64,000 bases of DNA from contig NZ_KB899245.1 of NCBI RefSeq assembly GCF_000378125.1, forward strand, positions 1 through 64,000, given 5' to 3'. Made by a program: the position numbers and the translations under genes. Below, one piece after another: positions 31,621 to 63,749 of this stretch; position 1 is the first letter of the stretch, and each line of letters begins with the position of its first letter. This DNA comes from Rudaea cellulosilytica DSM 22992. GTDB lineage: Bacteria; Pseudomonadota; Gammaproteobacteria; Xanthomonadales; Rhodanobacteraceae. The notes beneath the pieces were generated by a model, which did not search any database, was not told the origin of the DNA, and was given only the letters and a program-made list of their open reading frames with translations.

Positions 31621-32892
31621 CTACAATCGCTCGCGGGTCGGGACGAGTGTTGCGCTCAGCGCCAGCCCGAGGTGCACTGGCAACAGTAGAGCGATCCACA
31701 GCCAGTTGTCCTGCACGAAGCCAGGCAGGATTTTCACGAACCAGGCGAGAACGGCGCAAAAGGCAATCAACGCTGCGACGCGCCTGGCGAAACGTGTGGG
31801 GTGCCAGCGCCGTCGCAACGCACCCAGCCAGGCGGGCAGCAACAACAGACAGAGCGGATTGAGCAACAGCAGATTCTCGTTGCGCCAGGCGCTGATGTGT
31901 TCGGTCAACGTCCACAAGCCGAGCAGCACCAGACCGCCAATGCCGCAGACCAGCGCGATTGTGCCGGCGAGGCCGGCGAACGCGATGCGCGCTGCCGTGT
32001 TCGCGCGTGCGCGTACGAGGCCGAGCAGGATCATCGCTGTGACAATGCCGATCGCGAGCGCCGCCCATGTCCAGCGCGGCGGCAGTTCCAGCGGATCGGG
32101 TAGGCGGCCCTTGTTGAGTACGGTTTCGCTGGCGACGAGGGGCATGATGTTGCCGTTGGCGTCGGTCAGTTTGACCTCGCGCACGTGGCGCATCAATTCG
32201 GTCGGTACGAAGCTTTCGTCCCAGTACGACAGGCGCTGGTCAGAGTAGGGGCCGAGTCCCGCGTCGATGCCGAGCATGAGCGCCGTATCGGGACGCATGA
32301 GTCGGTCGGCATCCATGCGATAGGTGTAGCCGCGCGAGGGCGAGATGAGCTGGGCCTTGATCGCGCCGCCGAGTGCCTTGTCGAGCGCATCGCGCACGCG
32401 CGTGGAGCAGTTCGCGCGGAAATAGTCGTAGCGGTACTGTACGTTCTCTGGGCGCGTATTCCATTCGAGGAATTCGGCGAGCTCGCTGCGTTGCGCCGGC
32501 GTCAGGTTCAGTTCCTGGCGCACGATCCAGCGGCCTTCGTCGACGTAGACCGGATATTCCTCGGCGGGGTCGCCGACCGCAATGCGGTACATCATGCGGC
32601 CGCGCGCGAAGTTGACGAAGAAATTTTCCTGCGCGAAATCGAACATGCCGTAGTTGTACAGGCGCGCCGCACCGGTTGCCCCGTCGCGGATCTCGATCGC
32701 GTTGTGACCGAAGCGTTCCCAGACTTCCTCGCCGGGGCCGAAGGTGATCAGCGAGACGGCGAGATTGGCGCCGGACTCGACAGGCGCGGTTTCGGCGGTC
32801 TGCGCGAAGGCCGAGGTGATCAGCAGACAGCAGAAGAGTGCGCCGAGGGCGTGTTGCAATCCACGGAACAGCGGAACGATCCGGTCAAGCAT
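31621..32892 (-). CDS. DUF4105/Lnb-type membrane protein, candidate lipoprotein N-acyltransferase
   Basis: A 423-residue envelope protein. The start at 32892 overlaps the corC stop by 8 nt. A signal peptide (cleavage near A30) precedes a periplasmic domain of ~240 residues with WERFGHNAIEI (His63) and FRANCSTRVRD (Cys162), a plausible papain/NlpC-like His-Cys pair. About five transmembrane helices follow. I recall Pfam PF13387 (DUF4105) being renamed the Lnb N-terminal domain after a lipoprotein N-acyltransferase. The gene occupies the place of lnt in the E. coli miaB-ybeZ-ybeY-ybeX-lnt cluster, which supports that role. No Lnt-like sequence is visible in this window. Confidence 0.7.
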   Translation of the reverse strand: MLDRIVPLFRGLQHALGALFCCLLITSAFAQTAETAPVESGANLAVSLITFGPGEEVWERFGHNAIEIRDGATGAARLYNYGMFDFAQENFFVNFARGRMMYRIAVGDPAEEYPVYVDEGRWIVRQELNLTPAQRSELAEFLEWNTRPENVQYRYDYFRANCSTRVRDALDKALGGAIKAQLISPSRGYTYRMDADRLMRPDTALMLGIDAGLGPYSDQRLSYWDESFVPTELMRHVREVKLTDANGNIMPLVASETVLNKGRLPDPLELPPRWTWAALAIGIVTAMILLGLVRARANTAARIAFAGLAGTIALVCGIGGLVLLGLWTLTEHISAWRNENLLLLNPLCLLLLPAWLGALRRRWHPTRFARRVAALIAFCAVLAWFVKILPGFVQDNWLWIALLLPVHLGLALSATLVPTRERL

Positions 32893-33733
32893 CTGCCGGG
32901 CGCACGGCAAACTGCAGCACACGGCGGTCGTCGGCACGGGTGACGTGGAAATGGAAGCCACCGAGATCGACTTCTTCGCCGGTCTCGGGTAGATGACCGA
33001 ACTCGCTCGTGACCATGCCGCCGATCGTGTCGAACTCGTCGTCGGAGAAGCGGCTGCCGAGGCGCTCGTTGAAGTCGGCGATCGGAGTCAGTGCATTGAC
33101 CAGGAAGCGACCGTCGGGCTGTGCCTGGATCAGCTTCTTGCGCGCGGGATCTTCCTCGTCGTGCTCGTCGTCGATCTCGCCGACGATTTCCTCGAGCACG
33201 TCCTCGATCGTGATCAGGCCCGCGACGCCGCCGTATTCGTCCATCACGATCGCCATGTGGTTGCGCGATAGGCGGAATTCCTTGAGCAGGATGTCGAGTC
33301 GCTTCGACTCGGGAATCATCGCGACCGGGCGTAGCAGCGGACGGATGTCGCGCGGCGCGGCGCCGTTGGCGAAAGACTTGAGCAGATCCTTGGCCAGCAG
33401 GATGCCGACGATCTCGTCGGCGTCCTCGCCGTGCACGGGGAAACGCGAATGTCCCGACTCGATCACGCGGCGCAGGATTTCCTCGAACGGTGCCTCGACC
33501 GGCAGCACGACCATCTGTGCGCGCGGCACCATCACGTCGCCGACCTGTTGGTCGGCTACTTCGATGGCGCCTTCGACCATCGACAAGGTGTCACCGGAAA
33601 GCAGGCCGTTCGCCTGCGCGTGGCGCAGCTCCTCGAGCAATTCTTCGATGTTGCGCGGCTCGCCAGAGACCATCTGGCTGATCCGGTCCAGCCAGGATCG
33701 CGGCGGGGCCGAATTCGGAGGATCGTCGTTCAT
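32885..33733 (-). CDS. corC: CorC/HlyC family magnesium and cobalt efflux regulator (YbeX)
   Basis: A 282-residue cytoplasmic protein without the membrane DUF21 domain. Two CBS domains lie at about residues 60-190 ([14 protein letters not shown] and [32 protein letters not shown] regions), followed by a CorC_HlyC C-terminal domain. In E. coli YbeX is linked to Mg/Co efflux and ribosome maturation. It sits 82 bp after ybeY, a spacer with AT-rich sequence that could hold its own promoter. It is translationally coupled to the Lnb-like gene. Confidence 0.95.
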
Positions 33734-33815: not shown

Positions 33816-34280
33816 TCAGTTATATGGGTCGGCGATGCCGAGTTCGGCCAATATGCGGCGCTCGATCGCCTCCATTTTGTGCGCGTCTCGTTCTTTCTCA
33901 TGGTCGTAGCCGATAAGGTGCAGCACGCCATGAACGGTGAGGTGGGCATAGTGGTCGCGCACACGCTTGCCCTGATCGGAGGCTTCGCGCGCAATCACGG
34001 GCGGGCAGAGAACGAGGTCTCCAAGCAGCCTGGATTTCTCGCGCGGCGCGGGTTCGTACGGAAAGCTCAGGACGTTGGTCGCGTAGTCCTTGCCGCGATA
34101 GCGCAGGTTGAAGTCGCGAGCCGGTTCGAGGTCGAACAGGGCGATGTTCACCTCGGCCCGACCACGGCGCCTGCCGGTCAGCGCGGCGCGCACCCAGGTC
34201 TCGAACGAACGCGAAACCGGAACGCCGCGCCGACCGAAGTCGTTTTGCACGAACACGGAAAGATCGAGGCGGGCGCTCAC
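33816..34280 (-). CDS. ybeY: Endoribonuclease YbeY
   Basis: A 154-residue metal-dependent RNase involved in 16S rRNA 3' maturation and 70S quality control. The zinc-binding motif [11 protein letters not shown] (H-x3-H-x5-H) is intact near the C-terminus. The start ATG overlaps the phoH stop by 4 nt, implying coupling, and the gene order phoH-ybeY-corC is conserved. Confidence 0.97.
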
Positions 34281-62684: not shown

Positions 62685-63749
62685 ATGATGTCGACGACGA
62701 TGGCGATTACTGCGCATCCGCGCTCCCGCACCACGTTCGCCGTGCTTGCCGTGGCAGCGCTGGTATTGGCCGGCTGCGCCTCCGATCCGGCCGATGTCGA
62801 GGATCGTTCGATCGGCGAATCGCCGTCGCTGCAGGCGCCACCGCCCGTGCGCGCGAGCACGCCGGGCGGCAGCTATCGTGTAGTCAAGGGCGACACGCTG
62901 TATTCGATCGCGTTCAAGCGTGGCCTCGATTATCGCGACGTGGCGCAGTGGAACGGCATTGCAGCGCCGCAGTACAAGATTCTCGTTGGCCAGGAACTCC
63001 GTTTCAGCCCGCCGGGCATGCAAACCGCGTCGGTCGACACGCATCCGGCGGCCGTGGCTGCGCCGCACGAGATGACCGCGCAGGCTCCGGTGCCGGCCGC
63101 CAATCCCGCGGTCGCTGCACCGGCGCCGTCGGCGCCGAAAAGCACGAGCATGTTCGAGGATGTGCCAAACGAGCCCGCGCCGCCGCCGATCGAACAGGCC
63201 GCAGCGCCAACTTCAGCCTTGGCATCGAAGCCACAGCAACCGGTCACGCTCGCGCAACCTCCTGCAGCGCCCGTGATCGCCGCCACGCCGCCGCCGGTCG
63301 CGGCGCCTGCGGCCAAGAATGTTGCCGAGTCGCCACCATCGAAGCCGGCAAACGAGTCCGCATCGTCCAATGTCGGCGGCATCACCTGGCATTGGCCGAA
63401 TGGCGGCAAAGTGGTCGGCACCTTCGTCGCCGGCGATCAGACCAAGCAAGGCGTCGACATCGCCGGCTCCGCGGGCGATCCGGTGCAGGCCGCCGCAGAT
63501 GGCGATGTCGTCTACAGCGGCAACGGCCTGCTGGGCTACGGCGAACTGATCATCGTCAAGCACAACGCGAGCTTCCTCTCCGCTTACGGCCACAACCGCA
63601 AGCGCCTCGTTGCCGAGGGCGACAAGGTGCGTGCCGGCCAGCAGATCGCCGAGATGGGCTCGAGCGCGAGCTCGCGCGACGAGTTGCATTTCGAGATTCG
63701 CAAGAACGGCAAGCCGGTCAATCCGCTCGATTTCCTGCCGCCCCGGTAG
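62685..63749 (+). CDS. nlpD: NlpD-like outer-membrane lipoprotein, amidase activator
   Basis: A 354-residue lipoprotein. The signal ends with the lipobox LAGC (Cys ~29); the ATG at 62700 is an alternative start. A LysM domain (~64-107; YRVVKGDTLYSIAFKRG) binds peptidoglycan, followed by a long Ala/Pro linker and a C-terminal LytM/M23 domain. The HxxxD zinc site reads QGVDIAG and only one His of HxH remains (LHFEIR), so it is a non-enzymatic activator of AmiC-type amidases as in E. coli NlpD. It precedes rpoS, whose promoters often lie in nlpD. Confidence 0.93.
   Translation: MMSTTMAITAHPRSRTTFAVLAVAALVLAGCASDPADVEDRSIGESPSLQAPPPVRASTPGGSYRVVKGDTLYSIAFKRGLDYRDVAQWNGIAAPQYKILVGQELRFSPPGMQTASVDTHPAAVAAPHEMTAQAPVPAANPAVAAPAPSAPKSTSMFEDVPNEPAPPPIEQAAAPTSALASKPQQPVTLAQPPAAPVIAATPPPVAAPAAKNVAESPPSKPANESASSNVGGITWHWPNGGKVVGTFVAGDQTKQGVDIAGSAGDPVQAAADGDVVYSGNGLLGYGELIIVKHNASFLSAYGHNRKRLVAEGDKVRAGQQIAEMGSSASSRDELHFEIRKNGKPVNPLDFLPPR

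What the first reader, a model, noticed from the sequence alone, without database searches (positions are those of the whole stretch)
31621..32892. DUF4105/Lnb-type protein occupies the lnt position in the miaB-phoH-ybeY-corC cluster
In E. coli the order is miaB-ybeZ-ybeY-ybeX(corC)-lnt, lnt being the apolipoprotein N-acyltransferase. Here the gene coupled to corC by an 8-nt overlap is not lnt. It is a signal-peptide protein with a periplasmic domain carrying His63 and Cys162 in conserved-looking motifs, plus about five C-terminal helices. From memory, the DUF4105 Pfam entry is now named after Lnb, an alternative lipoprotein N-acyltransferase. The position suggests non-orthologous replacement of lnt in this lineage.
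Basis: partly seen in the sequence, partly recalled or inferred. Interest (0 to 1): 0.72.

Follow-up and report, generated by a model that had tools for sequence, protein, structure and literature searches.

The report
Lnb acyltransferase in the lnt slot
In a Rudaea-like bacterium and its relatives, the gene slot that in E. coli holds the enzyme adding the third fatty chain to lipoproteins holds instead a relative of Lnb, the unrelated Bacteroides enzyme reported to do that job, so bacteria thought to lack this step probably still perform it.

Summary
Window 31621-32892 (-) encodes a 423-aa protein overlapping corC by 8 nt. Pfam finds both Lnb domains above cut-off. It aligns along most of its length with a Bacteroides finegoldii protein that passes NCBI's Lnb equivalog cut-off (this protein itself does not), and keeps His63 and Cys162, invariant in 78 of 78 sequences compared. 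The genome (99.99% complete) has no LNT_N match; its four nitrilase-type hits to the lnt model are below cut-off. In the order, 385 of 398 genomes carry Lnb_N; the three with strong LNT_N matches are among the 13 without it, and their lnt lies directly after corC. In a neighbouring order, 44 of 85 genomes carry full-length Lnb, 35 Lnt without it, six neither; one Lnb carrier has a weak Lnt-like extra. In 14 of 19 Lnt-only loci read there, lnt is after corC. This exchange in one operon slot supports non-orthologous replacement. Alternation of this family with Lnt is already published in general terms; new here is its near-universal spread in this gammaproteobacterial order, while a published structure paper modelled diacyl anchors because it found no Lnt in Xanthomonas campestris. 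Enzyme activity is inferred, not shown.

The parts
31621..32892 (-). Lnb-type gene (423 aa), the gene of the finding
   Evidence: match to NF051878 Lnb over residues 24-395 (175.7 bits, below its cut-off) and to a Bacteroides finegoldii protein that passes it
32803..32892 (-). N-terminal hydrophobic signal/anchor helix (residues 1-30)
   Evidence: hydropathy peaks within residues 12-33, helix 2-28 in model
32359..32766 (-). Lnb_N periplasmic domain (residues 43-178), predicted permuted NlpC/P60-like fold
   Evidence: PF13387 83.8 bits (place); Foldseek best hit TseH 6v98
32704..32706 (-). codon of His63, predicted catalytic base
   Evidence: invariant in 78 of 78 and in the two Bacteroidota proteins aligned
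32407..32409 (-). codon of Cys162, predicted nucleophile that carries the acyl group
   Evidence: invariant in 78 of 78 and in the two Bacteroidota proteins aligned
31642..32070 (-). five C-terminal hydrophobic helices (residues 275-417), 5TMH_Lnb domain
   Evidence: PF25221 35.2 bits over residues 288-384; hydropathy peaks
32885..33733 (-). corC (CNNM-type), overlaps the Lnb gene by 8 nt
   Evidence: PF03471, PF00571; best NCBIfam model NF011675 CorC, below its cut-off
33816..34280 (-). ybeY
   Evidence: PF02130
34277..35266 (-). phoH/ybeZ
   Evidence: PF02562
35274..36611 (-). miaB
   Evidence: PF00919, PF04055, PF01938
30505..31602 (-). corA-like Mg2+ transporter gene directly downstream
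   Evidence: PF01544

Best explanation
The protein is the lipoprotein N-acyltransferase of this bacterium, an Lnb ortholog that stands in for Lnt in the corC-linked slot. Shown by computation: homology to Bacteroides Lnb over both domains, conserved His and Cys, five-helix membrane domain, no lnt found in the genome, and repeated Lnb-or-Lnt alternation in the same operon slot. Inferred: after Lgt and LspA have made a diacylglyceryl apolipoprotein in the inner membrane, Cys162, activated by His63, takes an acyl chain from a membrane phospholipid as a thioester and passes it to the free amino group of the lipoprotein's first cysteine, giving a triacylated lipoprotein that the Lol system carries to the outer membrane.
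For: Both Lnb Pfam domains above cut-off; 35 of 35 sequences of alignment A1 match PF13387 and 33 of 35 PF25221 at E<=0.001. Match to NF051878 Lnb over residues 24-395, E 1.3e-51; hhalign of A1 with the B. finegoldii protein (667.4 bits to NF051878, cut-off 550): probability 100, 342 columns, 27% identity. His63, Cys162, His332, Asn338, Pro346 shared by all 7 sequences of a Bacteroidota-to-Gammaproteobacteria alignment. No LNT_N in own genome. Order: Lnb_N in 385 of 398; P0001 ortholog in 77 of 80 chosen genomes, and the three misses (G006, G017, G019) are the three with strong LNT_N (94-117 bits), each directly after corC. Neighbouring order: 44 of 85 full-length Lnb, LNT_N in 36 of 85, overlap one weak hit, Fisher p 5e-18 leaving that hit out (genomes are related, so p is only indicative); lnt after corC in 14 of 19 Lnt-only loci read. 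Class control: LNT_N in 335 of 369. Model pLDDT 92.5, pTM 0.84; top Foldseek hit TseH, probability 1.00, a permuted NlpC/P60 enzyme by PMC12994826 (passages), a paper that also links DUF4105 to Lnb and to displacement by Lnt.
Against: No biochemical or mass-spectrometric result for this lineage was seen. The NF051878 equivalog cut-off is not met (175.7 of 550), though a Parabacteroides homolog also misses it (398.1). Identity to the two Bacteroidota proteins is only 25-28%. Foldseek E-values are modest (best 3.3e-3; 0 hits at E<=0.001) and active-site geometry was not measured. Only one LolC/E-type protein is over cut-off in the genome, i.e. probably a LolF-like transporter, which by the review PMC11784454 (passages) goes with species that tolerate lnt loss, so N-acylation need not be essential. 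One Gemmatimonadota record (L277, genome G800) has both an Lnb homolog and a 93.9-bit LNT_N protein, and 6 of 85 genomes in the neighbouring order have neither.
Confidence: 0.86

Rival explanations
1. The protein is an Lnb-fold lipid acyltransferase or hydrolase with another substrate (for example a phospholipid or another envelope protein), and lipoproteins in this group stay diacylated, as assumed for Xanthomonas campestris.
For: The NlpC/P60-like superfamily holds lipid-acting enzymes with other substrates (PMC12994826, passages); second Foldseek hit is human CLN5; a LolF-like transporter could handle diacylated cargo; PMC10368991 inferred diacyl anchors from Lnt absence (passage).
Against: The protein matches the Lnb model over residues 24-395, including the membrane domain, whereas the two other Lnb_N paralogs tested do not match NF051878 at E<=0.001. 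Its orthologs alternate with canonical Lnt in one operon slot, which a different substrate would not predict. The diacyl inference, as far as the passage shows, rested on not finding Lnt.
Confidence: 0.1
2. A divergent nitrilase-type Lnt elsewhere does the N-acylation, and the corC-linked protein has nothing to do with it.
For: 99 of 398 order genomes have a weaker LNT_N match (up to 74.9 bits) besides the three strong ones.
Against: The window's own genome has none, and its four sub-cut-off TIGR00546 hits are in proteins that I read as soluble nitrilases and a NAD synthetase. The divergent proteins are found in a minority of genomes; in six loci read none lies by corC, five lack a C-Y/F/W-E motif and one, L047, has it.
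Confidence: 0.03
3. Position by chance or operon hitch-hiking: an Lnb-like gene sits after corC without any functional link to lost lnt.
For: Gemmatimonadota homologs lie elsewhere (4 of 4 loci without corC found nearby).
Against: corC is directly upstream in 72 of 77 order loci within 450 nt and in 75 of 80 loci, and lnt takes this place in most relatives lacking Lnb that were read (3 of 3; 14 of 19). On a tree of the neighbouring genes at least 5 Lnt/Lnb switches are needed, 4 on the better-filled rows.
Confidence: 0.01

Closest known systems
Lnb, lipoprotein N-acyltransferase of Bacteroides (DUF4105; Armbruster et al. 2024, PNAS; not held, known here through citing papers)
   Same: Same two domains, 342-column profile alignment, same His and Cys, conserved His/Asn/Pro in the membrane domain
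   Different: 25-28% identity to the two Bacteroidota proteins aligned, below the NF051878 equivalog cut-off; in Gammaproteobacteria and nearly fixed in the miaB-phoH-ybeY-corC operon, whereas those two genes are followed by an alkaline-phosphatase-family gene and secA
Lnt, apolipoprotein N-acyltransferase (LNT_N + CN_hydrolase)
   Same: Operon slot after corC and, by inference, the reaction
   Different: Unrelated nitrilase fold with a Glu-Lys-Cys triad (triad recalled); no LNT_N or CN_hydrolase match in this protein
Permuted NlpC/P60 enzymes: TseH, Tox-Act1, LRAT, YiiX
   Same: Conserved His and Cys; TseH is the best Foldseek hit; shared superfamily stated in PMC12994826 (passages)
   Different: By that paper, toxins or other lipid-acting enzymes; that they lack the five-helix domain is recalled, not tested

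Membership tests
Lnb | PF13387 Lnb_N domain over curated cut-off | tested here: met
   83.8 bits, cut-off 22.2
Lnb | PF25221 five-helix membrane domain over curated cut-off | tested here: met
   35.2 bits, cut-off 25.2
Lnb | Catalytic-type His and Cys of the permuted NlpC/P60 core | tested here: met
   H63 and C162 in 78 of 78, aligned with the B. finegoldii and P. distasonis proteins
Lnb | NCBIfam equivalog NF051878 over its cut-off of 550 bits | tested here: not met
   175.7 bits; Parabacteroides homolog 398.1 also misses, B. finegoldii 667.4 passes. So I claim an Lnb-type ortholog by domains and position, not a member of NCBI's equivalog
Lnb | NlpC/P60-like fold | tested here: inconclusive
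   Confident model; TseH top hit with probability 1.00 but E 3.3e-3 and TM 0.22/0.45; residue geometry not measured
Lnb | Lipoprotein N-acyltransferase activity | not testable with these tools
   needs mass spectrometry and complementation
Lnt | LNT_N plus CN_hydrolase domains | tested here: not met
   no such match in the protein

The most novel reading that the evidence does not exclude
Almost the whole xanthomonad order, plus part of a neighbouring order, N-acylates its lipoproteins with a cysteine enzyme of the Lnb type instead of Lnt; the two unrelated enzymes have been swapped several times within one fixed operon slot, with Lnb moving between orders by lateral transfer, so the slot is kept for the reaction rather than for the protein. 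The published inference that Xanthomonas lipoproteins are diacylated would then be wrong.
Probability: 0.72. Interest if true: 0.7.

Novelty: new member of a known kind. Interest (0 to 1): 0.6.

Why it matters
Lipoprotein N-acylation is usually treated as the Lnt reaction in Gammaproteobacteria. PMC10368991 (passage) found no Lnt in Xanthomonas campestris B100 and modelled a diacyl anchor in LolA/LolB; PMC7828034 (Table 1 passage) lists Lnt among conserved single-copy genes missing from Xylella fastidiosa, Xanthomonas vasicola and Xanthomonas albilineans. It also gives a clean case of non-orthologous replacement in place: same operon, same slot, two unrelated folds, several switches. Work that aims inhibitors at Lnt would probably not cover this group (inference).

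Tried and rejected
The primary Lnb paper is not held. PDB sequence search found no relative (best E 0.6). A structure from the single sequence was useless (pLDDT 43.2) and was not used. Searches with the f2 locus L127 in the plasmid and E. coli collections, meant to name family f2, did not name it; I therefore only infer that f2 is Xanthomonadaceae. A tblastn of the protein in plasmid records gave 5 records, all Bacteroidota; two of these proteins were aligned, the Prevotella stretch was not used. My first one-clade test asked the wrong question (the complement of a clade); redone: Lnb of the window's order as one clade apart from the neighbouring order and Gemmatimonadota is rejected at p 0.029, but the groups were chosen after seeing the tree; the window's family as one clade is not rejected (p 0.17). 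Direction of the switches is not resolved; PMC12994826 states displacement of DUF4105 by Lnt.

Full report
Observation. The gene lies at 31621-32892 on the minus strand, 423 codons from ATG, and overlaps corC (32885-33733) by 8 nt; ybeY, phoH and miaB precede it and a corA-like gene follows. In an annotated E. coli genome the order is miaB-ybeZ-ybeY-corC-lnt, so the gene does occupy the lnt place.

What it is. Pfam gives Lnb_N (83.8 bits, cut-off 22.2, residues 43-178) and 5TMH_Lnb (35.2 bits, cut-off 25.2, residues 288-384). NCBIfam gives the Lnb equivalog model over residues 24-395 at 175.7 bits, below its cut-off of 550. A Bacteroides finegoldii DUF4105 protein scores 667.4 on that model and a Parabacteroides one 398.1; the profile of alignment A1 (35 sequences) aligns with the former over 342 columns at probability 100 and 27% identity. 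In a seven-sequence alignment His63, Cys162, His332, Asn338 and Pro346 are shared by this protein, the two Bacteroidota proteins, a Gemmatimonadota one and three further gammaproteobacterial ones. Among 78 sequences (the window's and 77 located with it) His63 and Cys162 are invariant. Two other Lnb_N proteins of the order, one of 356 aa and one of 762 aa with DUF7844, do not match the Lnb equivalog model at E<=0.001.

Structure. With 51 relatives as alignment, AlphaFold2 gives pLDDT 92.5 and pTM 0.84. Foldseek's best PDB hit is the effector TseH (E 3.3e-3, probability 1.00, TM 0.22 by query and 0.45 by target), the second human CLN5 (E 4.0e-3, probability 0.91); none reaches E 0.001. PMC12994826 (passages) places TseH, LRAT, YiiX, Tox-Act1 and DUF4105 in the permuted NlpC/P60 group with conserved His and Cys. 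That CLN5 is a lipid transacylase is recalled, not from a call. I could not read model coordinates, so the distance between the two residues is untested.

Is lnt missing? In the window's genome (4,343,639 bases, 6 contigs, 99.99% complete) LNT_N has no match and the lnt model four sub-cut-off matches (best 31.2 bits against 132.9) in proteins that I read as soluble nitrilases and a NAD synthetase. PF13387 has exactly one match, this gene.

The order. Lnb_N matches 385 of 398 genomes. LNT_N matches 102 of 398, 95 over cut-off, but only three strongly: G017 117.3, G006 116.3 and G019 93.7 bits; the next is 74.9. These three are among the 13 genomes without Lnb_N. A search with the window's protein found orthologs in 77 of 80 chosen genomes; the three misses are the same three (they were put into the set on purpose). 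In all three, lnt follows corC directly. G006 and G017 share 57-58% CorC identity with the window; G019 has only 48% MiaB and 28% CorC identity and a gene that looks like metK next door, so I suspect that it does not belong in this order and give it little weight. Of the other ten genomes without Lnb_N, nine are at most 88% complete and one is 96% complete; one of the ten (G052) has a weak LNT_N hit. The 99 genomes with weaker LNT_N matches carry other proteins, mostly in open frames of about 470-590 or 820-940 aa; in the six loci read none lay by corC, five lacked a C-Y/F/W-E motif and one, L047, had it. Of 19 Lnt stretches read in the neighbouring order, 16 show the motif and three identical ones do not, so the motif is only a rough guide. 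So exclusion holds for canonical, corC-linked lnt, not for every LNT_N protein.

Synteny. Of 77 order loci, corC lies upstream on the same strand within about 450 nt in 72, within 950 nt in two more, and is not found in three, one of which is a second copy. Of 80 loci from the genome collection, 75 have corC within 600 nt; of the other five, one has it 901 nt away and four are Gemmatimonadota records without corC found nearby. The nearest record that names a genus is Rudaea sp. 3F27F6 (L200; two unnamed MAG records are nearer); its contig has the length of contig C10 of G267, which genome search lists as the window's own genus, so the window is Rudaea-like. Other carriers are named Dokdonella, Tahibacter, Dyella, Rhodanobacter, Luteibacter, Frateuria, Nevskia, Solimonas and Hydrocarboniphaga.

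A natural experiment next door. In the order that holds Solimonas marina, 57 of 85 genomes match the ortholog profile at E<=0.001, of which 44 are full-length with E below 1e-100. LNT_N matches 36 of 85. Forty-three have Lnb only, 35 Lnt only, one (G819) Lnb and a 44-bit LNT_N hit, six neither; completeness of these genomes is not told. Of 19 Lnt-only genomes read, lnt is next to corC in 14; in the other five, all with two or more LNT_N copies, the stretch fetched held no corC. On quick trees of the neighbouring genes, carriers of Lnb and Lnt interleave: at least five switches with or without G019, four on the 82 rows with at least half of the columns filled, three within the neighbouring order alone. 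In the Lnb tree the neighbouring order's proteins form one clade (98 in the quick tree; 96/97 in the careful tree) close to the window's family, and keeping the window's order as one clade is rejected at p 0.029 (post hoc). This suggests lateral transfer of Lnb between the orders into the same slot; direction and number are open.

Controls. In 369 genomes of the class (five of them of the window's order), LNT_N matches 335 and Lnb_N 90, the latter mostly in open frames of about 600-730 aa. Read against each other by eye, 84 of the 90 have both; of the six without LNT_N four belong to the window's order, and G443 and G559 do not. So Lnb_N alone does not displace Lnt; the exchange concerns the 420-aa type. 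Of 40 Lnb carriers searched, 12 have an LNT_N match, 11 of them at most 58.4 bits and one (G800, the Gemmatimonadota record of L277) 93.9 bits, a case of both that may be real or due to contamination.

Pathway. One LolC/E-type protein is over the family cut-off in the genome (480.4 bits; three others are 35.8 bits or less), pointing to a LolF-like transporter. By the review PMC11784454 (passages) species with LolF can tolerate lnt loss, so N-acylation may be beneficial rather than essential. A lipobox protein (62685-63749 +) in the window suggests that substrates exist. Lgt and LspA were not searched for.

What is known. Lnb was found in Bacteroides (Armbruster et al. 2024, not held; seen through passages of PMC13103446 and PMC11694511). 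PMC12994826 states that DUF4105 proteins are repeatedly displaced by Lnt in three genomic contexts and that the clade is mainly, not only, Bacteroides, with a branch rich in Gram-positives (passages); the words corC, ybeX, Xanthomonad and Lysobacter do not occur in its main text, but its figure and tables could not be read, so this very context may be among the three. PMC10368991 and PMC7828034 report Lnt missing from Xanthomonas and Xylella (passages). Searches for Lnb with Xanthomonas, Lnb with Lnt, DUF4105 and triacylated lipoproteins with Stenotrophomonas listed no paper whose title or shown start of abstract assigns Lnb to this group.

Verdict. An Lnb-type ortholog, new as a member in this lineage, in an alternation with Lnt already described in general. 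The mechanism (acyl-Cys162 intermediate, transfer to the lipoprotein amino group) is inferred from the family.

Noticed in passing
L048 (7440-9908), L049 (6508-7974), L050, L051, L052 (5499-6971 -), L047 (6381-7994 -): Divergent LNT_N proteins occur in about a quarter of the order, nearly always beside Lnb_N: a 475-490 aa type (in L049 and L050 just after a gene that looks like a TetR-type regulator), an 822-aa type, and one of 537 aa in a cluster with sulfotransferase-like and glycosyltransferase-like neighbours (my reading). Their role is unknown.
   Followed up: partly
L056 6195-7265, L057 5934-6986, L054 5994-8282: Other Lnb_N paralogs in the sister family: a 350-356 aa protein with hydrophobic N-terminal segments and a 762-aa protein with DUF7844; L056 and L054 do not match the Lnb equivalog model.
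   Followed up: partly
L046 (G019): A genome listed in the order whose corC operon looks foreign (MiaB 48%, CorC 28%, lnt and then a metK-like gene); possibly misplaced or mixed.
   Followed up: no
L230, L267, L270, L277: Gemmatimonadota records encode close Lnb homologs (43-47% to the window) outside the corC context; one genome (G800) also has a 93.9-bit LNT_N protein.
   Followed up: partly
genomes G810, G818, G821, G825, G843, G844: Six genomes of the neighbouring order have neither full-length Lnb nor LNT_N; completeness unknown.
   Followed up: no
L161 5090-6277: A second, unlinked Lnb copy in G038 (29-34% to the window, no corC found in the stretch).
   Followed up: no
window 62685-63749 +: Candidate lipoprotein with a clear lipobox (LVLAGC).
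   Followed up: no
L315 (G000:C4:317480-318712): Only one LolC/E-type protein over cut-off in the genome, so the exporter is probably LolF-like.
   Followed up: partly
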